From IMG/VR virus record IMGVR_UViG_3300007363_001292, positions 1 to 25,516 of that record: a stretch of 25,516 nt of DNA. The stretch is one strand, 5' to 3'. Made by a program: the position numbers and the translations under genes. Below the pieces are notes generated by a model, which did no database searches, was not told where the DNA came from, and saw only the letters and a list, made by a program, of their open reading frames with translations. Source of the DNA: a virus. Of this stretch, positions 6,659-25,516 are shown piece by piece. Each line of letters opens with the position of its first letter. The first letter of the stretch is position 1.

Positions 6659-7172
6659 TATGGACGATATTGACCTGCGGCATGAGCTTGTCGATGTAAT
6701 TCTTTTAATGTTGCAGTCTGACTTGCACCGTAACTTCCTTATTAAGGATCTTGAGCGGCTGGTCATTCCTCCGCTTATGCACGGCAAAATGTCCGTCATT
6801 TACTCTACGGATTACACCGGCATGAGTGCTACCTACACGCCTCGCGGACTTTACTCTTACGCCTTTTTAGACGAGGAGGCGGAGAAAGGTTACATGGACG
6901 GCAGTCGTAAACTTCAACCAGAAGACTGGCAAAACGGACCGGGGGACGGAACGCTTTGGGTCATAGATTTTATTGCGCCGTACAACAATGCCCGTACTAT
7001 TGCGCGTCAAGTACAAAAGGAACTGACCGAATATTACATTGACACTTATCCGAAGGATGGCGCGTGGTTCCGCCGCCCCGCAAAGGGCGGGCATAAGCGC
7101 TGGACCTCGGGCGTTTTGTTTCAAATAGAAAAACGGAAAAAGAAAAATGCACACCTCCGACTTGTTTCATAA
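6648..7172 (+). CDS. HlyC-like toxin-activating lysine-acyltransferase homologue
   Basis: A 174-residue protein that aligns by eye along most of its length with HlyC/RtxC acyltransferases. These enzymes move a fatty acyl group from acyl-ACP to internal lysines of RTX toxins. The N-terminal catalytic motif SDLHRN (Ser24, His27) matches SPLHRN of HlyC (Ser20, His23). PEDWQNG followed by LWVIDFIAPY (Asp107) matches AEDWTSG and the WFIDWIAPF block holding the catalytic Asp of the family. The length is close to HlyC (about 170 residues). GTG 6648 is chosen because AGGAG lies 6 bp upstream; ATG 6660 is an alternative. It overlaps the genes on both sides, so it belongs to the virion operon. No RTX nonapeptide repeats or type I secretion genes are present, so the substrate is probably a phage protein. 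Family assignment is fairly sure; the substrate is unknown. Confidence 0.8.
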   Translation: MPYDMDDIDLRHELVDVILLMLQSDLHRNFLIKDLERLVIPPLMHGKMSVIYSTDYTGMSATYTPRGLYSYAFLDEEAEKGYMDGSRKLQPEDWQNGPGDGTLWVIDFIAPYNNARTIARQVQKELTEYYIDTYPKDGAWFRRPAKGGHKRWTSGVLFQIEKRKKKNAHLRLVS

Positions 7173-18033: not shown

Positions 18034-18291
18034 ATGGACACAGTCTTCGCTATTATTGTATCCTTCGGCACCATGCTCGTGTCTGACGACACCAAAGAGT
18101 TTTTTAAGACGGCTCTTGAGGAGATGGAGCAAGGTGCCAAGTGGCATTATGTGGGTATGCAGCCCCTGGACCCTACTGCCAAGGCAATACCCGGACGGTT
18201 GTGTGATCCTGAGACGGGCGAATGTGGTGACCCGTACATTATCTGGAAGCTTAAAATGCCGGAGGTCGTTTCCAAAAGAGCAGAAAAGTGA
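18034..18291 (+). CDS. Small phage protein with hydrophobic N-terminus
   Basis: 85 residues, starting at ATG 18034, 10 bp after the previous stop; the ribosome site is weak. The first 16 residues are hydrophobic (MDTVFAIIVSFGTMLV) and could be a signal or membrane anchor. A helical section follows, then AKWHYVGMQPLDP and CDPETGECGDPY with two cysteines. Its stop overlaps the next GTG (GTGA). The function is not recognised; location in the envelope is an inference from the N-terminus. Confidence 0.6.
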   Translation: MDTVFAIIVSFGTMLVSDDTKEFFKTALEEMEQGAKWHYVGMQPLDPTAKAIPGRLCDPETGECGDPYIIWKLKMPEVVSKRAEK

Positions 18292-18569
18292 AAAAGGCTA
18301 AAGGCAAACATCCCTTCAATGCGCTGAATGCGATGCGGGTAAAAAAGATATCGTCTCCGGGACGTTATGCTGATGGAAACTGTCTTTATTTGGTTGTCGA
18401 TCAATCTGGCGCTAAACGCTGGGTGCTTCGCATTATGGTGCATGGCCGAAGAAGGGACATGGGTCTAGGAGGTATAAAAACGGTTACCCTCGCAGAGGCC
18501 CGCGCCAAGGCATATAGATATCGCAAGGTAGCCAGAGAGGGCGGCAACCCTTTTGGGGAGCAACGGTGA
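18288..18569 (+). CDS. Free-standing integrase arm-binding domain (DUF4102-like), copy 1
   Basis: 93 residues matching the N-terminal arm-DNA-binding domain of P4-type tyrosine integrases: KISSPGRYADGNCLYLVVD, SGAKRWVLRIMVHGRRRDMG, GGIKTVTLAEARAKAYRYRK and EGGNPF. The core-binding and catalytic domains (R..HxxR..Y) are absent; the frame simply ends. GTG 18288 couples it to the previous gene; ATG 18333 is an alternative. The domain should bind DNA repeats. Possible roles are a transcription regulator, a directionality factor or a relic. A second copy lies at 19059, just past the methyltransferase. Confidence 0.75.
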   Translation: MKKAKGKHPFNALNAMRVKKISSPGRYADGNCLYLVVDQSGAKRWVLRIMVHGRRRDMGLGGIKTVTLAEARAKAYRYRKVAREGGNPFGEQR

Positions 18570-19075
18570 TGCGTAACTCAAACGACTACTATCCAACCCC
18601 GCATTCAATAATTGAAATTGTAATAGAACACCTGAATTGGGAAAACGTGACTCCCTGGGAACCGTGCGCTGGGGATGGCCGATTTGCTGATGCACTCGAT
18701 CAAAAATACGGATGCAAAACGGTCCGACACGACATAACCACCGGCAAAGACTTTTTTGATTGGGATTACGCACAAACAACGGATCTCATTACCAACCCCC
18801 CGTTTTATTGCATCCGAGATTTTATTGATCATGCGTTTTCCATTGGCGTCTTGAGAATGGCGCTGGTCTGTCCCGAAAGATTGTGGGCATGCAAAAAAGG
18901 CAGCAACCAATGGAAACGACATATGCCGACTAGGTGGATAAATCTTGATTATAGGGAAGATTATTTAGGTAAAGGCGGAAAACCAGATAGGGCTTTGGCC
19001 GTTGGCATTTGGGATACGCCACATGCAGAAAAATGCACGTATGAGATTTGGGGGCGTTATGGCACGGGGGATTAA
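18569..19075 (+). CDS. DNA adenine N6-methyltransferase-like protein
   Basis: 168 residues. SAM-binding motif I is EPCAGDG (residues 31-37) and catalytic motif IV is NPPF (76-79), the order and sequence of N6-adenine methyltransferases. It is short and shows no target-recognition domain. No restriction enzyme lies nearby, so it is an orphan enzyme that may protect phage DNA or mark it. ATG 18569 overlaps the previous stop (TGATG) and has GGGGAG 8 bp upstream; GTG 18566 is the alternative. A DNA-modifying role is likely; the target sequence cannot be told. Confidence 0.78.
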   Translation: MRNSNDYYPTPHSIIEIVIEHLNWENVTPWEPCAGDGRFADALDQKYGCKTVRHDITTGKDFFDWDYAQTTDLITNPPFYCIRDFIDHAFSIGVLRMALVCPERLWACKKGSNQWKRHMPTRWINLDYREDYLGKGGKPDRALAVGIWDTPHAEKCTYEIWGRYGTGD

Positions 19076-19496
19076 TAGACTTTCTGCGAGAGCGGTCGAA
19101 ACCGTAAAAAAACCTGGCCTGCTTGCCGACGGCGGCGGTCTTTATCTCCAGGTATCTAAATCAGGCACCAAATCCTGGCTCTATAAATTTATGCTGAATG
19201 GGCGATCGCGAGAAATGGGACTGGGCTCATTAAAGGGCGTGAGCCTCATGGATGCGCGAGAGAAAGCCGCTGGTTGCCGTTCTTTACTGGCGGAGGGCAT
19301 TGATCCGATTGAAGACAGAAAAACCCGGCAAAATGAATGTAAAGAGGAGGTGTACGTCTCCTTTGTGCGGTCAGGTGAGAGGTCCGGTGATAAGAGAGTC
19401 CTCACCGTCCACCAAGGCAACGCCCTTGTAATTGAGACTGAGCTTACCCAAGGCACAATACATAAATTGTTACGTGAGCTTGTAAAAATAATGTGA
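19059..19496 (+). CDS. Free-standing integrase arm-binding domain (DUF4102-like), copy 2
   Basis: 145 residues. Residues 1-90 closely match the P4-type integrase N-terminal domain (INRLSARAVETVKKPGLLAD, GGLYLQVSKSGTKSWLY, GRSREMGLGSLKGVSLMDA, AEGIDPIEDRKTRQ). The remaining 55 residues are unrelated to integrases and end in a helix (QGTIHKLLRELVKIM). No catalytic domain is present. ATG 19059 is chosen because the domain begins there, and it overlaps the methyltransferase by 17 bp. It shares the domain with the gene at 18288 but the two are quite diverged, so they were probably acquired separately or duplicated long ago. Confidence 0.78.
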   Translation: MARGINRLSARAVETVKKPGLLADGGGLYLQVSKSGTKSWLYKFMLNGRSREMGLGSLKGVSLMDAREKAAGCRSLLAEGIDPIEDRKTRQNECKEEVYVSFVRSGERSGDKRVLTVHQGNALVIETELTQGTIHKLLRELVKIM

Positions 19497-19591: not shown

Positions 19592-20140
19592 ATGGATGAT
19601 TTATTATCCTTTTTAAAAGATTCGGTTGACTATGATCCCGAAACAGGCGTCTTTCGCTGGAAGAAAGAGCGCCCCCTTGAACACTTTTCGTCTGAAACGT
19701 ACCGCAAGGCATGGGCTTCTCAGTATGGGTCTAGGAAACTAAACGCCGGGGACAACGGATACGTCTACGTCCAGCTAAACTACCTTGGCAGAAAAAAGCG
19801 CGTCCGAGCGCACCGCCTCGCGTGGGCCCTCGTCCACGGAACGTGGCCCACGGACCAAATAGACCACATCAACGGTGACCGAGCCGATAACCGCATCGTC
19901 AATCTCCGCGTCGTCACCAACGCTGAAAACGGACGGAACCGGAAGCTATCCAAGAACAATTCCTCCGGCTACAACGGCATCTATAAAATAAAACGATCTA
20001 ACTCATTTCACGTCGAAATTCACTACAACAACCGGCGCATCTTCCTGGGGCAGTTTAAAAAACTGGAGGACGCCATCCGAGCGAGAAAAAAGGCAAATCT
20101 AAAGTACGGTTACGCTGAAAACCATGGCCTGCCCCGTTGA
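19592..20140 (+). CDS. HNH endonuclease with AP2-like C-terminus, copy 1
   Basis: 182 residues. The HNH core is HRLAWALVHGTWPTDQIDHI plus NGDRADNRIVNLR, with the usual His-Asn-His spacing of phage HNH homing-type nucleases. The C-terminal part (NSSGYNGIYKIKRSNSFHV, FLGQFKKLEDAIRARKKA) is the AP2-like DNA-binding region often fused to it. It would cut DNA at a specific site and may be a mobile gene. ATG 19592 has only a weak ribosome site. The adjacent gene is a diverged paralogue. It is not inserted in an intron as far as can be seen. Confidence 0.88.
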   Translation: MDDLLSFLKDSVDYDPETGVFRWKKERPLEHFSSETYRKAWASQYGSRKLNAGDNGYVYVQLNYLGRKKRVRAHRLAWALVHGTWPTDQIDHINGDRADNRIVNLRVVTNAENGRNRKLSKNNSSGYNGIYKIKRSNSFHVEIHYNNRRIFLGQFKKLEDAIRARKKANLKYGYAENHGLPR

Positions 20141-20633
20141 GGTAGTCTTCGATAAATTTGGATGCGACACCCGAACCGGGTTGGTGTACCGCGCCTGCAA
20201 GGACGGGCCCCTGGTAGTTTGGAAACCCTTCCTAACCATCAATGAAGAAGGCTACATCGTTACCTACCTACGTTGGGAAAAGAAGACATATTACGTCTAC
20301 GCCCACCGTGTGGTGTGGGCCTTTGCTCACGAATCTTGGCCCTCGGGCCTAATCGATCACATCAACGGCAATCGCTCCGATAATCGTATCGCTAATCTTC
20401 GCGACGTTCCCGCAGGCGCTAACAGCAAGAACAAAGCTCGATACAGAACAAATATCTCTGGTGTGACAGGCGTCAGTTGGTGCAAGGCACGCCGGAAATG
20501 GAGAACCAAAATAACCTCCAATTATGTGACCACGCTCCTCGGACACTTCGAGGACTTTGACGAGGCCGTGCGGGTGCGCCGCAAAGCCGAGCGCGAGAAA
20601 AACTTCCATCCAAACCATGGCCGCAAAAAGTGA
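20124..20633 (+). CDS. HNH endonuclease with AP2-like C-terminus, copy 2
   Basis: 169 residues, a paralogue of the preceding gene. The HNH core is HRVVWAFAHESWPSGLIDHI plus NGNRSDNRIANLR, and the AP2-like tail is SGVTGVSWCKARRKWR and LLGHFEDFDEAVRVRRKA. It overlaps copy 1 by 17 bp in another frame; both proteins end in a similar NHGR/NHGL segment. The pair probably arose by tandem duplication followed by strong divergence. ATG 20124 is the first start; there is no clear ribosome site, so coupled translation is likely. Confidence 0.87.
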   Translation: MACPVEVVFDKFGCDTRTGLVYRACKDGPLVVWKPFLTINEEGYIVTYLRWEKKTYYVYAHRVVWAFAHESWPSGLIDHINGNRSDNRIANLRDVPAGANSKNKARYRTNISGVTGVSWCKARRKWRTKITSNYVTTLLGHFEDFDEAVRVRRKAEREKNFHPNHGRKK

Positions 20634-21421: not shown

Positions 21422-21632
21422 TATGATAACAAAAGGTTATGACACGGTCCTCAAGTGGCAAAAAGCGGACCCCATGAACCCACAAACGTGGCCCACGGGC
21501 CTGGAACTACGAAAGGACCTCTTGCGCCAAGCTAACGAAATAGAGTGGCGCTCGAAAGATTTTGCTAGAGCCGACGCCCTGCGGAAGCAGGCCGACGAAA
21601 TAGAGGAGGACAAGCTCTACCCACCATTTTAA
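21414..21632 (+). CDS. Small phage protein, unknown function
   Basis: 72 residues, starting at ATG 21414, 8 bp before the end of the regulator gene, with GGAG 8 bp upstream. The central part is helical and charged (RKDLLRQANEIEWRSKDF, RADALRKQADEIEEDK) and ends in YPPF. It is the third gene of the regulator operon. No known family was recognised. Confidence 0.6.
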   Translation: MLDMITKGYDTVLKWQKADPMNPQTWPTGLELRKDLLRQANEIEWRSKDFARADALRKQADEIEEDKLYPPF

Positions 21633-21774
21633 GTTGAGGCCCTCACCGCCCTCTGACATGAAGGGCCGTGCCTCGCTTTCTCTTAACGGTGCGAAAGCCA
21701 TGAAACATTCCTGAAGTGCCGTGGGCCTCCTAAGTTCAGTAGCGGCCAAGGATGTAACCGTATCCTTTTTAGGA

Positions 21775-21811
21775 ATAACCCCACCAGTTTTCTCCATACT
21801 GGTGGGGTTAT
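21775..21811. terminator. Long perfect hairpin without T-run
   Basis: ATAACCCCACCAGT (21775-21788) pairs with ACTGGTGGGGTTAT (21798-21811), 14 perfect base pairs around a 9-base loop. Neither strand shows a proper T-run after it, so it may be a weak terminator of the regulator operon or an RNA-processing or protein-binding site. Confidence 0.6.
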
Positions 21812-21815
21812 GCGT

Positions 21816-21843
21816 TTGACGCATAGCTGGTATGCAATAATAC
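21816..21843 (+). promoter_or_regulatory. Candidate promoter after hairpin
   Basis: TTGACG (21816-21821) and TAATAC (21838-21843) with a 16 bp spacer. Two small dyads, ATGCGT-TTG-ACGCAT and GCATA-GCTGG-TATGC, overlap it and may be operators. Support is by consensus only. Confidence 0.45.
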
Positions 21844-21851
21844 CCTAACTC

Positions 21852-21947
21852 TTAACTAGATATAAGTTAACTCTCTCAATTCCGTTAACCTTTTGTTAAC
21901 CTTTATATGCGATAATTCTTATATCGAAAGAACGGGGCCAACCCCGT
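21852..21947. promoter_or_regulatory. Repeat-rich control region before peptidase-like gene
   Basis: The noncoding stretch 21633-22021 has no supportable gene. Here it holds TTAACT and AGTTAA as a dyad, two direct copies of GTTAACCTTT (21884 and 21895 onward), an extended -10-like block TATATGCGATAAT (21904-21916), a dyad CGATA/TATCG and the hairpin ACGGGG-CCAA-CCCCGT (21932-21947). GTTAAC is itself a palindrome. This looks like a regulatory region with a promoter for the gene at 22022. Confidence 0.5.
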
Positions 21948-22021
21948 CACGCTCTTACACATTGTGAATATGCTTGGGACGGTTTAAGCGGACCGAGATG
22001 CTCTAACGATTGGAGAATCGA

Positions 22022-22558
22022 ATGAAGCTTAAACTGAAAGCCGTCAACCACGGCAAAGACAAAAACCGATTTTGCGGTCCTTCCGTAATATCCGCCGTCA
22101 CCGATCTGACTACCGGAGAGGCTGCACGGCTAATCCGAATGAAAACCGGAAAACGCATGGTCACGGGTACGCATGCAAGCGAGGTCGAGAGTGTCCTCAA
22201 CGACTGCGGTATCCAAATGACCACGCTACCCCCGCCCGAAGGTTGCAAGTTTGGGCGGTCCAAGGGCATCACCCTGGCGCACTGGCTTCGACTTACACAC
22301 GGCCAGCGCAAAGACCGAATATTCTTGGTCGTCGCAGGGTGGCACTGGCAATTGATTAGTGGCAATCGTTACGTGTGTGGCCGTATTTCATCCGAGGGTA
22401 TTGTCTCTATCAATCACCCAGAAGTGAAACGACGGGCACGTGTCGCTGAAGTCTTTGAACTAACCTCAGATAACGTCAAAATGCCAGACACAGATGTGTC
22501 GAAGCCTAAATACCCTAATGCCGCTATCCGAGCGAGAGATGGTCGCTTAGACCAATAA
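22022..22558 (+). CDS. Papain-like cysteine peptidase-type phage protein
   Basis: 178 residues. The segment RFCGPSVISAVTDLTTGEAA puts Cys18 at the start of a helix, and GWHWQLISG places His108 before a strand, as in papain-fold (C39- or NlpC-like) cysteine peptidases. The helix after Cys, the Leu/Val-rich strand IFLVVAG and the distance of 90 residues fit that fold. A third catalytic residue (Asn or Asp) is not obvious. ATG 22022 has GGAG 6 bp upstream; the in-frame TTG 22010 overlaps that site and is rejected. It may process a phage or host protein. It stands alone with its own control region. Family assignment is by motif only. Confidence 0.62.
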   Translation: MKLKLKAVNHGKDKNRFCGPSVISAVTDLTTGEAARLIRMKTGKRMVTGTHASEVESVLNDCGIQMTTLPPPEGCKFGRSKGITLAHWLRLTHGQRKDRIFLVVAGWHWQLISGNRYVCGRISSEGIVSINHPEVKRRARVAEVFELTSDNVKMPDTDVSKPKYPNAAIRARDGRLDQ

Positions 22559-22602
22559 CCATAAACCACGGCTCTCGGTCCACTTAAACTGTTCCAGGCA
22601 AA

Positions 22603-22757
22603 TCGCTATATATATATAGGGGAGAAATTATTTTTTTTGAAAAAAATTATTTTTGGGGTGGAACACGTGGAACAAATGGAACAAAGCTCTGTATCCCTTA
22701 TTGGAGTTCAAAAATCGTGTTCCACTAAGTCCAAAAAGTGTTCCATTTGTTCCACCC
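22603..22757. repeat. TGGAACA iterons and AT-rich tract, candidate origin or packaging site
   Basis: Within the gene-free region 22559-22868 there are three direct TGGAACA copies with a 9 bp period (22659, 22668, 22677) and three inverted TGTTCCA copies (22718, 22739, 22748), the last two again 9 bp apart. GGGTGGAACA and TGTTCCACCC close the array as a dyad. Just before it lies an AT-rich tract with alternating TA and long T and A runs (22606-22654). This is the pattern of a replication origin or of a TerS recognition (pac/cos) site; TerS follows directly. Confidence 0.7.
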
Positions 22758-22813
22758 AAGGTGATTGGATGCCATCTGAGAGCGTAAATTTCTTAAAAAT
22801 TTGGTTGAACCCC

Positions 22814-22827
22814 CCTTATATATAAGG
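22814..22827. promoter_or_regulatory. 14 bp perfect palindrome before TerS
   Basis: CCTTATATATAAGG is perfectly symmetric and lies 42 bp before the TerS start. It may be an operator or part of the packaging or origin region. No protein ligand can be named. Confidence 0.45.
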
Positions 22828-22868
22828 CAGAAAACTTGTAGGCCTCATGTAAATTAACGGTGAAGAAA

Positions 22869-23534
22869 ATGGGCAAACATGCTGTAAAGAAAAAAGACGC
22901 TGATCCTGATTGGGTTGAGACCCGTGGTCGGAAACCGCTGACCGCAAATACTAAGCTAACCCGTAAGCAGGAGCTTTTCGTAAAGGAACTTGTCAGCAAG
23001 GACGGGCAGATAACATTGCGGGAGGCGGCCATTAATGCAGGCTACCCTGCTAGCAGCGCCCACAGTAGGGCTTATGAGCTTACTAATCCCGATAAGAGCC
23101 CCCACGTAGTAGCTGCTATCCGGGCGTACCGCGAGGAGCTAGACGTAAAATTTGGGGTAACCTATCAAAGGCATCTGCGCGACCTCCAGACAATTCGTGA
23201 CATGGCATTGCAAAACGGTGCTTACTCCGCCGCCGTCCAGGCCGAGTATCGACGTGGGCAGGCCCAAGGAGACATATATGTGAACAAGTCCGAGATCAGA
23301 CATGGGTCCATCGATTCCATGTCTAAAGACGAAGTGTTAAAAGCCTTAGAGGAGATCAAGCAGAGCTATGCCCCCATCACCATCGATATCACTCCCGAAG
23401 AGCCGGACAATACCGCGAACCGCAGCAAAGCGAGAAAGCGGCTTGTGGAAGCTAATGAAGGAAGGGGTGACGAAGAGCCAGAGGAAACTATTGATGACGA
23501 GGCTGGAGACCTGGGCGACGCCGGGGATACCTGA
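22869..23534 (+). CDS. terS: Terminase small subunit
   Basis: 221 residues. The N-terminal basic segment (HAVKKKDADPDWVETRGRK) leads into a helix-turn-helix domain typical of Terminase_2: LTRKQELFVKELVSKDGQIT, REAAINAGYPASSAHSRA and SPHVVAAIRAYREELD. It continues with a central oligomerisation-type helical part (LRDLQTIRDMALQNGAYSAA) and ends in an acidic tail. TerS binds the packaging site and feeds DNA to the large subunit. ATG 22869 is preferred; GTG 22860 is possible. The acidic tail overlaps the next gene for 167 bp in another frame. The large subunit is not in the window. Confidence 0.8.
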   Translation: MGKHAVKKKDADPDWVETRGRKPLTANTKLTRKQELFVKELVSKDGQITLREAAINAGYPASSAHSRAYELTNPDKSPHVVAAIRAYREELDVKFGVTYQRHLRDLQTIRDMALQNGAYSAAVQAEYRRGQAQGDIYVNKSEIRHGSIDSMSKDEVLKALEEIKQSYAPITIDITPEEPDNTANRSKARKRLVEANEGRGDEEPEETIDDEAGDLGDAGDT

Positions 23535-23826
23535 TGTCATCATACAAGATGAGAACGGCTTGTTTCATTTTGTGGAGCTAAAACATACTGGCGGTAGAGC
23601 GATAGAGCTATCTCCCCATCAGATAACTTGGATGGATAACCATAAGAACGGCAGCGCCTGGATTTTGGTTAGACGGTCTACCCGCAAAGAGAAAGACACA
23701 ATCCGAGTCTACCATGCGTCCAAAGCTATTGACGCCAGAATGGAAGGGATAAACTGCCCGCCAAATCTTTTAGTTGAGGAGCCATTTAATTGGGATGAAA
23801 TTATGGGGTTGATTTGTCCTAGATAA
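23368..23826 (+). CDS. VRR-NUC-type PD-(D/E)xK nuclease
   Basis: 152 residues. GIPDVII (Asp56) and FVELKH (Glu70, Lys72) form the PD-(D/E)xK active site, with SPHQITWMDNH as the following family motif. Such VRR-NUC proteins act as structure-specific or Holliday junction nucleases in phage DNA processing. The segment KRESGLWKLMKEG before the core also looks family-like, so ATG 23368 is chosen, with AGAGGAG 13 bp upstream. This gives a 167 bp overlap with TerS. Shorter starts at 23455 and 23494 (GAGGAAA 6 bp upstream) are possible but would cut into the conserved part. It may resolve concatemers before packaging. Confidence 0.78.
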   Translation: MPPSPSISLPKSRTIPRTAAKRESGLWKLMKEGVTKSQRKLLMTRLETWATPGIPDVIIQDENGLFHFVELKHTGGRAIELSPHQITWMDNHKNGSAWILVRRSTRKEKDTIRVYHASKAIDARMEGINCPPNLLVEEPFNWDEIMGLICPR

Positions 23827-23867
23827 TCGCATACAGTGCCCGCTCCTTAACACAACGGAGAATCGAG

Positions 23868-24080
23868 ATGGGCATTCTTAGAGAAGGCTTTGAAATGGAT
23901 CATACGACGATCTGGAATAAAGGCACTACGCTGGAGCTTGGAATGGTCGGGTTCCATCATGAAAGTCAGACGGCTTTTGTTGAGTGGTATGATGATCAGG
24001 CAAAATTGACGAAGGCCGAGGTGGACCGCCTGATTAAAGCGCTTCAAGCGGTAAAGAGGAAATTCCCAGACGATGCCTAA
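23868..24080 (+). CDS. Small phage protein, unknown function
   Basis: 70 residues, starting at ATG 23868 behind GGAGAATCGAG, a leader nearly identical to the one before 22022. The front is beta-like (TTLELGMVGFHHESQTAFVE) and the end is a basic helix (KAEVDRLIKALQAVKRKF). The function is not recognised. The near-identical leaders suggest shared translational control or local duplication. Confidence 0.6.
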   Translation: MGILREGFEMDHTTIWNKGTTLELGMVGFHHESQTAFVEWYDDQAKLTKAEVDRLIKALQAVKRKFPDDA

Positions 24081-24110
24081 ATCAATCAACGAACGCCAAG
24101 CCGACCTGGC

Positions 24111-24165
24111 CGGCCACTAGGCCCCAGCCCTGGACGCACACCTGGCCAGGGCTTTGGGGTGCAAA
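24111..24165 (+). repeat. Structured intergenic repeat, copy 1
   Basis: CGGCCACTAGGCCCCAGCCC opens a hairpin: AGCCCTGG (24126-24133) pairs with CCAGGGCT (24146-24153), with an outer CCCC/GGGG helix (24122-24125 with 24156-24159) and a TT bulge. GGGTGCAAAC closes the unit. A second copy at 24446 has a U-A to C-G change in both arms, so pairing is preserved. An RNA function such as processing, attenuation or stability is likely. Confidence 0.72.
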
Positions 24166-24192
24166 CTACCACCTAACCGAAGGGATAAAGAC

Positions 24193-24423
24193 ATGATTTA
24201 CCATCACACAGAAACAATCCCGCATCCTCGCCGTCATGGCTGGACCGTAAAAATAAAATTTTACGTCCCGCCCAAGGCAGACGGAACACCCGATAAAAGG
24301 TCAGCGCCCCGCGCAAGCCGTGGGGTTGTCCATTATCACCAGAATGGCCACAAGCGAATTTATTTTGACAATGTGTTGCGTTTTGAGCGGTACGCCAGGC
24401 GCGGGGAGAATAGGCAAAATTGA
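24193..24423 (+). CDS. Small basic phage protein, unknown function
   Basis: 76 residues, starting at ATG 24193 with AAGGG about 9 bp upstream. It is rich in His, Arg and Lys (YHHTETIPHPRRHGWTVKI, GVVHYHQNGHKRIYFDN) and probably folds as a small beta-rich unit that could bind nucleic acid. It sits between the two copies of the structured repeat. A longer frame from TTG 24154 runs through the first repeat and is not favoured. No family was recognised. Confidence 0.58.
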   Translation: MIYHHTETIPHPRRHGWTVKIKFYVPPKADGTPDKRSAPRASRGVVHYHQNGHKRIYFDNVLRFERYARRGENRQN

Positions 24424-24445
24424 CCTAGGAGTACGCCCCCAACAT

Positions 24446-24502
24446 CGGCCACTAGGCCCCAGCCCCGGAGCGTGAAAACGTGGCCGGGGTTTCGGGTGCA
24501 AA
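24446..24502 (+). repeat. Structured intergenic repeat, copy 2
   Basis: CGGCCACTAGGCCCCAGCCC is shared exactly with copy 1. AGCCCCGG (24461-24468) pairs with CCGGGGTT (24484-24491). Compared with copy 1 both partners of a stem pair have changed (T-A to C-G). GGGTGCAAAC is again at the end. The loop differs in sequence and length, as expected when only the helix matters. Confidence 0.72.
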
Positions 24503-24503
24503 C

Positions 24504-24537
24504 GTCCCGGCGAAGCGCTGCAACGCCAAGCCGGGAC
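24504..24537 (+). other. Second hairpin attached to repeat copy 2
   Basis: GTCCCGGC (24504-24511) pairs perfectly with GCCGGGAC (24530-24537). The 3' part contains AACGCCAAGCCG, which also occurs at 24091-24102 before copy 1, so the two units share modules in a different order. Confidence 0.6.
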
Positions 24538-24569
24538 TGATCACAACAACGAGAGAAAGGAGAATAGAG

Positions 24570-24776
24570 ATGTCTTGGAAACCCGTGTTCATTATGAACG
24601 ACAACGAAAGGGCCTATAACGGCCAGCGTTTTGCCACCCAGGAGGAGGCGCGGCTTAGTGCTGACCGTAGGTTTGGGGTCTGGACCATGCCTGTTGATTT
24701 CACAACTGAGGAAAGTGATGATCCGGTAAACTATGTGTTTGATCCAATCAAAGGAGACGTCAGTGTTTCTACTTAG
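24570..24776 (+). CDS. Small conserved-type phage protein, unknown function
   Basis: 68 residues, starting at ATG 24570 with AAAGGAGAA about 7 bp upstream. The middle part RFATQEEARLSADRRFGVWTMPVDF followed by ESDDPVNYVFD is a pattern I associate with small proteins of marine phages. No catalytic motif is visible. A longer frame from 24480 runs through the structured repeat and lacks a ribosome site. The next small frame begins 14 bp before its end. Confidence 0.65.
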   Translation: MSWKPVFIMNDNERAYNGQRFATQEEARLSADRRFGVWTMPVDFTTEESDDPVNYVFDPIKGDVSVST

Positions 24777-24950
24777 TTTACTTGGACGCCTGTTGTACGG
24801 GCCAGATTGGAAAAAGTACGCCAACATATCACCCCCAAAAAAGATGCGGACAAGGTCCCGCCGCCGTAGGAGTTTTTAAGGGGCACTGCTAAATCTTTTG
24901 ATGAGGCGTATGACCTTCTAAAGAAAAGGGATGACGCTAAGAAAAAATAA
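24763..24950 (+). CDS. Small membrane-anchored/basic protein, likely frameshifted
   Basis: GTG 24763 stands 6 bp after AAGGAG (24751-24756). The first frame gives 38 residues: a hydrophobic N-terminus (MFLLSLLGRLLYG) and an Arg-rich end (KKMRTRSRRRRSF), then a stop at 24877. In the -1 frame, coding-like sequence goes straight on as LRGTAKSFDEAYDLLKKRDD to the stop at 24948, but has no start of its own. The switch point is a run of five T. Either a -1 frameshift is used, or an indel broke the gene (or the assembly). The joined product would have about 62 residues. Confidence 0.45.
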
Positions 24951-24956
24951 AACTTG

Positions 24957-24980
24957 ACCCGGGCTTGACCCGGGTTTTCT
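24957..24980 (+). terminator. Rho-independent terminator
   Basis: ACCCGGG (24957-24963) pairs with CCCGGGT (24969-24975) around loop CTTGA, followed by TTTCTTTTCT. A-rich sequence precedes it, so it could also work on the reverse strand. Confidence 0.9.
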
Positions 24981-24993
24981 TTTCTGTCATAAC
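24965..24993 (+). promoter_or_regulatory. Weak promoter overlapping the terminator
   Basis: TTGACC (24965-24970) and CATAAC (24988-24993) are 17 bp apart. The -35 lies in the terminator hairpin, like the terminator/promoter junction at 17259-17320. It may restart transcription for the last genes. Confidence 0.4.
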
Positions 24994-25028
24994 GTATGCG
25001 CTTTAACCCATACATAGGAGATATGACT

Positions 25029-25364
25029 ATGACTTACTTACTATCTGACTTGAGAGATATTTATGACCCTTATGCGATTTTCGTCGGGCAGCCAAACTCT
25101 AAGCATACTGTCCCTTGGATTGGCACTTTAGAACAGCGCGTTTTGCAAGCATATGAGCCGCCGGAGGATGAAGATAAAAACCCCCGCCATGCGGCGTGGT
25201 TTATTGCAGGCCGTGCAGGCCGTTCGGATGGTACATTTGGCCGCTGGGAGTATGGCGACACATATCGCGAGAACATACTAGACACGATGCATCTCAAATA
25301 TGCCTCCCCAGAATTTATAGAGGCTTACCGGAACTATCCTTTCACTTTTAACGGTGCGGCATAA
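25029..25364 (+). CDS. Small conserved-type phage protein, unknown function
   Basis: 111 residues. ATG 25029 is chosen because AGGAG (25016-25020) lies 8 bp upstream; ATG 25023 is too close and 24996 too far upstream. The protein is rich in aromatic and charged residues (DLRDIYDPYAIFVGQP, HAAWFIAGRAGRSDGTFG, RWEYGDTYRENILDTMHLKY). No family was recognised. The stop overlaps the next ATG (TAATG), so the last genes form an operon. Confidence 0.62.
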   Translation: MTYLLSDLRDIYDPYAIFVGQPNSKHTVPWIGTLEQRVLQAYEPPEDEDKNPRHAAWFIAGRAGRSDGTFGRWEYGDTYRENILDTMHLKYASPEFIEAYRNYPFTFNGAA

Positions 25365-25507
25365 TGGATACCATCACCGTAATTATTGAGGCGGGTTGCG
25401 TGGTTGATGTTAGAAACCTTCCGCCCGGCTGGCTTTACGAGATTGAAGATAGGGACGTAACCCCAGATGATGAGGAGGCCGAGCATGAAAACCATCGTCC
25501 ACGTTAA
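25364..25507 (+). CDS. 47-residue acidic phage protein
   Basis: ATG 25364 overlaps the preceding stop. The product starts with a beta-like segment (TITVIIEAGCVVDVRNLPPG) and ends very acidic (DRDVTPDDEEAEHE). Small proteins of this IIEGGxVxDV type are common in phages; the function is unknown. Coupled translation is likely, since no separate ribosome site was seen. Confidence 0.6.
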   Translation: MDTITVIIEAGCVVDVRNLPPGWLYEIEDRDVTPDDEEAEHENHRPR

Positions 25508-25516
25508 CCAGCACGT
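25485..25516 (+). CDS. Start of a further small gene, cut by window end
   Basis: ATG 25485 follows GAGGAGG (25472-25478) by 6 bp, a strong ribosome site inside the preceding gene. Only MKTIVHVNQH is visible, which looks like the start of a small phage protein. The rest lies outside the window. Confidence 0.5.
   Translation, partial: MKTIVHVNQH

What the first reader, a model, noticed from the sequence alone, without database searches (positions are those of the whole stretch)
24091..24537. Duplicated intergenic RNA hairpin with compensatory base change
Two copies share CGGCCACTAGGCCCCAGCCC and GGGTGCAAAC. In the stem, CCCTGG/CCAGGG in copy 1 becomes CCCCGG/CCGGGG in copy 2, while loops differ. 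Covariation within one genome indicates selection on RNA structure. A further shared module AACGCCAAGCCG changes place. This may be a new phage RNA element.
Basis: seen in the sequence. Interest (0 to 1): 0.68.

Follow-up and report, generated by a model that had tools for sequence, protein, structure and literature searches.

The report
Repeated gene-end hairpin in marine phage
A marine bacterial virus carries a small GC-rich RNA hairpin, three times over and starting right after a UAG triplet, between tiny genes it recently picked up; it looks like a worn-down transcription-stop signal that travelled with those genes, not a new class of RNA.

Summary
The two copies are real (24106-24166, 24441-24503; 335 nt apart) and the compensatory change (U-A to C-G) is there. 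It is a single event, however: on the three clear copies 10 of 12 pairs never vary and 182 of 500 shuffles do as well. The better-supported fold is one extended hairpin that begins directly after a UAG triplet (z -2.8, -2.9, -3.7). In two copies the UAG ends a short ORF (...LAGH*).

I found a third copy and a related fourth 4-5 kb downstream in an overlapping contig of the same phage. The fourth is a canonical intrinsic terminator before the large terminase gene; a relative has it without the added hairpin. Copies 1-3 share its stem and GGCCCCAG head but have a broken U-tract and score below the terminator threshold.

Copies 1 and 2 lie inside a 702-bp insert holding two ORFan genes. A 99.65%-identical relative lacks it precisely. 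No other homologue was found in 2.9 million viral contigs or 84,980 genomes.

Best reading: a terminator-derived gene-end hairpin that spreads with small accessory-gene cassettes, comparable to but not a member of T4-type mobile regulatory cassettes (PeSLs). 'New phage RNA element' is partly supported; selection on structure is not proven.

The parts
23857..23870 (+). Left edge of insert: GGAGAATCGAGATG (ribosome-binding site and start codon)
   Evidence: Matches the right edge at 24559-24572 in 13 of 14 bases; single copy GGAGAATAGAGATG in L015
23868..24558 (+). Lineage-specific insert (702 bp between equivalent start codons 23868 and 24570)
   Evidence: Absent in L015 (99.65% identical upstream, 97% downstream) and in L016-L020 by DNA comparison; protein positions leave no room for it in L021-L023 and L031
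23868..24080 (+). ORFan gene, 70 aa
   Evidence: Relatives only in the same phage; no Pfam or PHROGs match
24073..24120 (+). Possible 15-codon ORF MPKSINERQADLAGH*, start overlapping the end of the 70-aa gene; its stop is the TAG of copy 1
   Evidence: Read from sequence; the coding end CTGGCCGGCCACTAG is shared with copy 3, where it ends a 34-aa ORF
24106..24166 (+). Element copy 1 (type A 5' flank CTGGC)
   Evidence: 81.8 bits with R2
24121..24160 (+). Extended hairpin of copy 1, beginning directly after TAG 24118-24120
   Evidence: MFE -24.7 kcal/mol, z -2.78
24092..24103 (+). 12-mer AACGCCAAGCCG, first occurrence
   Evidence: near chance, not near copies 3 and 4
24193..24423 (+). ORFan gene, 76 aa
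   Evidence: Relatives only in the same phage
24441..24503 (+). Element copy 2 (type B 5' flank CCAACAT, shared with copy 4)
   Evidence: 80.2 bits; flank match to copy 4, 84% over 36 nt, E 1.3e-5
24456..24497 (+). Extended hairpin of copy 2, beginning directly after TAG 24453-24455
   Evidence: MFE -26.1 kcal/mol, z -2.87
24504..24537 (+). Separate strong hairpin GTCCCGGC...GCCGGGAC after copy 2 only
   Evidence: MFE -22.0 kcal/mol, z -4.35
24522..24533 (+). 12-mer AACGCCAAGCCG, second occurrence, inside the hairpin above
24559..24572 (+). Right edge of insert: GGAGAATAGAGATG, start of the conserved gene 24570-24776
   Evidence: conserved 68-aa gene in L015-L023 and L031

Best explanation
The element is a gene-end hairpin, descended from or sharing ancestry with the phage's own intrinsic terminator upstream of terL, that sits between small accessory genes and has been copied or acquired together with them. 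Shown: three copies plus a terminator-type relative at two places of one phage; copies 1 and 2 inside a recent insert; hairpin directly after UAG; stem kept while the apex changes. Inferred: in the transcript the hairpin forms as soon as ribosomes leave the UAG and acts as a weak or leaky transcription stop and/or 3'-end protector that insulates one small gene from the next; at the DNA level the repeats and the ribosome-binding-site repeats at the insert edges give homology by which cassettes are gained and duplicated.
For: Copy 3 found outside the window (L112:732-792, 56.9 bits, E 3.9e-13, different apex). L112 overlaps a contig of this phage by 520 nt at 100%. Copy 4 (L112:1092-1156) shares GGCCnnTAGGCCCCAG and the stem AGCCCCGG...CCGGGGTT, has a U-tract (TTTTCTTTT) and scores +48.9; its L018 homologue scores +46.6, against -21.6, -12.7 and -7.8 for copies 1-3. 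Flank types A then B occur in the same order at both places around unrelated ORFs. Insert with precise empty site. Copies 1-3 absent from 80 TerS-relative loci and from 32 relatives' whole records, one of them 54 kb with only the terminator form. Other phages of the group also repeat hairpin, promoter or terminator modules before accessory genes, e.g. L031:6525 and 6886, a post-stop hairpin without U-tract.
Against: Copies 1-3 score below the terminator threshold and no expression data exist. The direction of descent (terminator to gene-end hairpin) is inferred from one relative. Hairpin 1 and the tail GGGTGCAAAC are conserved between copies 1 and 2 without an explanation in this model, although copy 3 departs in the tail (GTAGGAAC). 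Recent duplication alone could explain the conservation.
Confidence: 0.5

Rival explanations
1. Neutral by-product: the sequence was duplicated by recombination with the inserted genes and is conserved only because the copies are young; the hairpin is a decayed terminator without function.
For: Only one compensatory change and 10 of 12 pairs invariant; broken U-tracts; restricted to one phage species.
Against: Flanks and loops have diverged completely (loops) while stems stay fully paired, and the hairpin is more stable than shuffles in all three copies.
Confidence: 0.27
2. A dedicated cis-acting regulatory RNA (for example a protein-binding or put-like antitermination element, or a translation-coupled switch between hairpin 1 + hairpin 2 and the extended hairpin).
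For: Two alternative folds of similar energy (copy 2: -28.0 vs -26.2 kcal/mol; copies 1 and 3 favour the extended hairpin); conserved loop ACTA and conserved 3' tail in copies 1 and 2.
Against: No Rfam family at gathering score or E up to 10 over the element. The ACTA block in copy 3 is the end of a coding sequence; copy 4 has CATA; the tail is not kept in copy 3. Two copies only 335 nt apart in one operon are not expected for an antiterminator.
Confidence: 0.13
3. A recombination site of gene cassettes (integron attC-like or other site-specific site).
For: Element at the 3' side of small ORFan cassettes, repeated in direct orientation.
Against: No GTTRRRY box beside any copy; the empty site in L015 has no element; the insert edges are ribosome-binding-site repeats, not the element; no integrase catalytic domain seen among the window proteins searched, only Arm-DNA-bind_3 proteins.
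Confidence: 0.06

Closest known systems
Mobile regulatory cassettes / PeSLs (promoter early stem-loops) of T4-type phages (Arbiol 2010, Comeau 2014; known here through PMC4503421, and own knowledge)
   Same: Repeated intergenic stem-loop modules at the borders of shuffled small genes; proposed to give homology for cassette exchange
   Different: No promoter in copies 1-3, no good terminator tail, different phage group; hairpin abuts a UAG
Intrinsic (rho-independent) terminators, in particular the one upstream of terL in this phage group (L112:1092-1156, L018:10272-10337)
   Same: Shared head GGCCCCAG and stem AGCCCCGG/CCGGGGTT, GC-rich hairpin at a gene end
   Different: Copies 1-3 have only 3-4 U followed by GGG(G); score below 0
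Integron gene cassettes with attC sites
   Same: ORF followed by a structured repeat
   Different: No attC boxes, no integron integrase seen, element absent from the empty site

Membership tests
Intrinsic terminator | Stable GC-rich hairpin | tested here: met
Intrinsic terminator | Uninterrupted U-rich tract after the stem, score above threshold | tested here: not met
   Copies 1-3 score -21.6, -12.7, -7.8; copy 4 +48.9. Copies 1-3 are not filed as terminators
Mobile regulatory cassette / PeSL | Early promoter joined to the stem-loop | tested here: not met
   No plus-strand sigma-70-type match in 21500-25516, and none on either strand in the element regions; other promoter types not testable
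Mobile regulatory cassette / PeSL | Repeated copies at borders of shuffled genes | tested here: met
   Copies at two places beside ORFan genes; insert absent in relatives
Integron attC | GTTRRRY and RYYYAAC boxes flanking an imperfect inverted repeat | tested here: not met
   No GTTRRRY at any of the three copies
Any Rfam RNA family | Covariance-model match | tested here: not met
   None at gathering score; none over the element up to E 10
Selected RNA structure (covariation) | More compensatory changes than shuffles | tested here: inconclusive
   One pair; 182/500 shuffles equal
Transcribed, functional RNA | RNA-seq ends or abundance | not testable with these tools
   No expression data

The most novel reading that the evidence does not exclude
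A mobile 'gene-end' RNA module, comprising the last few codons, the stop codon and an abutting bistable hairpin, is copied from gene to gene within a phage and couples translation termination to transcript fate for newly acquired ORFans.
Probability: 0.1. Interest if true: 0.55.

Novelty: new variant of a known kind. Interest (0 to 1): 0.27.

Why it matters
It gives a clean case (empty site in a 99.65%-identical relative) of how uncultured marine phages gain tiny ORFan genes, and shows that the gained genes come with repeated hairpins related to a terminator. It also cautions that one compensatory change between two copies in one genome is weak evidence for a new RNA.

Tried and rejected
Rfam at gathering score and at E up to 10: nothing on the element. 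DNA pattern scans of viral contigs for the whole element, relaxed 3' tail, variable hairpin 1, tail only, and GGCCNNTAGGCCCCAG and of genomes: apart from this phage all hits lack a matching hairpin 2. blastn of copy 2 against plasmids and phages: no homologue. Homology of the two ORFs between the copies (76 aa vs 88 aa): not convincing (shuffle p 0.02 on 7 residues). Homology of the intergenic flanks beyond the element: none. attC, antitermination and sigma-70 promoter readings: not supported. A first pair count with a misplaced structure line was discarded.

Full report
What was checked. The window is a 25.5-kb IMG/VR record from an uncultured tailed phage: family-A DNA polymerase, UvrD- and SNF2-type helicases, and a terminase small subunit related to those of Pelagibacter phages HTVC023P/HTVC027P and phage DSL-LC04. 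Both copies exist as described. They lie after the stops of two small genes (70 aa, 23868-24080; 76 aa, 24193-24423) that have no relatives outside this phage.

The insert. A contig that is 99.65% identical to the window up to 23870 (L015) continues directly with the gene at 24570. It lacks 702 bp that hold both ORFans and both copies, and GGAGAATMGAGATG stands at both edges in the window and once in L015. L016-L020 lack the insert too, and the protein positions in L021-L023 and L031 leave no room for it. So the finding is part of a recent, lineage-specific insertion.

Further copies. Scans for the hairpin with its inner pairs left free found L112, a contig that overlaps L006 (the same phage) by 520 nt at 100% identity and continues it. 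Placed end to end, its first base would be position 27601 of the window's numbering. It holds copy 3 (L112:732-792; 56.9 bits, E 3.9e-13 with the model from copies 1 and 2), with an unrelated apical loop (TTTGCGAAAGCATT). It also holds a relative, copy 4 (L112:1092-1156), with GGCCCATAGGCCCCAG and the stem AGCCCCGGCACG...CGTGCCGGGGTTTTCTTTT, upstream of terL. Copies 1 and 3 share the flank CTGGC; copies 2 and 4 share CCAACAT. The order A-ORF-B is the same at both places (335 and 360 nt), but the ORFs between are not convincingly related.

What the conserved 5' block is. In copy 3 CTGGCCGGCCACTAG encodes the end (LAGH*) of a 34-aa ORF that follows the VDL(V) gene by a TAATG overlap. L024 has a 29-aa membrane-type ORF in the same place (sequence). 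In copy 1 the same letters end a 15-codon ORF, MPKSINERQADLAGH*. The perfectly conserved first hairpin GGCC-ACTA-GGCC therefore overlaps coding end plus stop codon in copy 3 and possibly in copy 1, and its four pairs never vary, so they give no evidence for structure.

Fold. From the base after TAG, copies 1-3 fold as one extended hairpin, GCCCCA-GCCCYGG...CCRGGGY-UU-UGGGGU, with z -2.78, -2.87 and -3.71 (boundaries chosen after seeing the folds). With hairpin 1 included, copy 2 prefers two hairpins (-28.0 vs -26.2 kcal/mol) and copies 1 and 3 the extended one. Covariation amounts to one two-sided and one one-sided change; 182 of 500 shuffles reach the same, and random substitutions would spare all pairs in 1.4% (any change) or 17% (transitions only, as seen) of trials.

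Relation to terminators. Copy 4 scores +48.9 on a d'Aubenton-Carafa-type scale (formula written from memory), its L018 homologue +46.6, other operon ends +21 to +64; copies 1-3 score -7.8 to -21.6 because three or four U are followed by GGG(G). L018's version lacks hairpin 1, and its 54-kb record has no other copy. I infer that copies 1-3 derive from, or share an origin with, this terminator, and that hairpin 1 and the flanks were added by recombination at gene ends.

Context. In the same phage group repeated modules before accessory genes are common: terminator + hairpin + ribosome-binding site (window 24943-25021 and L004:7311-7390), promoter-like + hairpin + T-run (L057, L080, L083), and a hairpin right after a stop codon without T-run (L031:6525-6571 and 6886-6932). 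This resembles the PeSLs said to mediate gene shuffling in T4-like phages (PMC4503421; the original papers were not held), but the promoter that defines a PeSL is missing here.

Conclusion. Most likely this is a terminator-derived gene-end hairpin that came with small accessory genes, with a probable but unproven role as a leaky stop or stabiliser.

Noticed in passing
L112:1441-1456; L018:10633; L021:9458; and 18 further loci: A perfect TGTTTCACGTGAAACA, which matches the bacterial chromosome-partition site parS (own knowledge), lies in the long intergenic region before terL in 21 loci of this phage group, within a block conserved across distant members.
   Followed up: partly
22656-22757: Direct and inverted repeats of GGAACA (GGTGGAACACGTGGAACAAATGGAACA ... 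TGTTCCATTTGTTCCACC) just upstream of the small terminase gene; relatives have inverted A/T-rich repeats (TATATATA) at a similar place.
   Followed up: no
18288-18569 and 19002-19496: Two proteins whose only recognised domain is the integrase arm-binding domain (Arm-DNA-bind_3), without a recognised recombinase catalytic domain.
   Followed up: partly
24943-25021 and L004:7311-7390: Second repeated intergenic module of this phage: canonical terminator CCCGGGCTTGACCCGGGTTTTC + small hairpin GTATGSG..CCCATAC + ribosome-binding site, before two different genes.
   Followed up: partly
L031:6525-6571 and 6886-6932: Independent case of a hairpin directly after a stop codon, repeated 361 nt apart between small genes, with altered stem ends and loop and no U-tract.
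   Followed up: partly
L040, L054, L068, L076 upstream of terL: Long low-complexity GC-rich stretches of short repeats (GTGATGCGCGGGGC and similar) between the accessory genes and terL.
   Followed up: no
19808-19914 and 20301-20407: 74%-identical DNA in two neighbouring genes of 182 and 169 aa that look like HNH-type endonucleases by eye: a tandem duplication of a probable homing-type gene.
   Followed up: no
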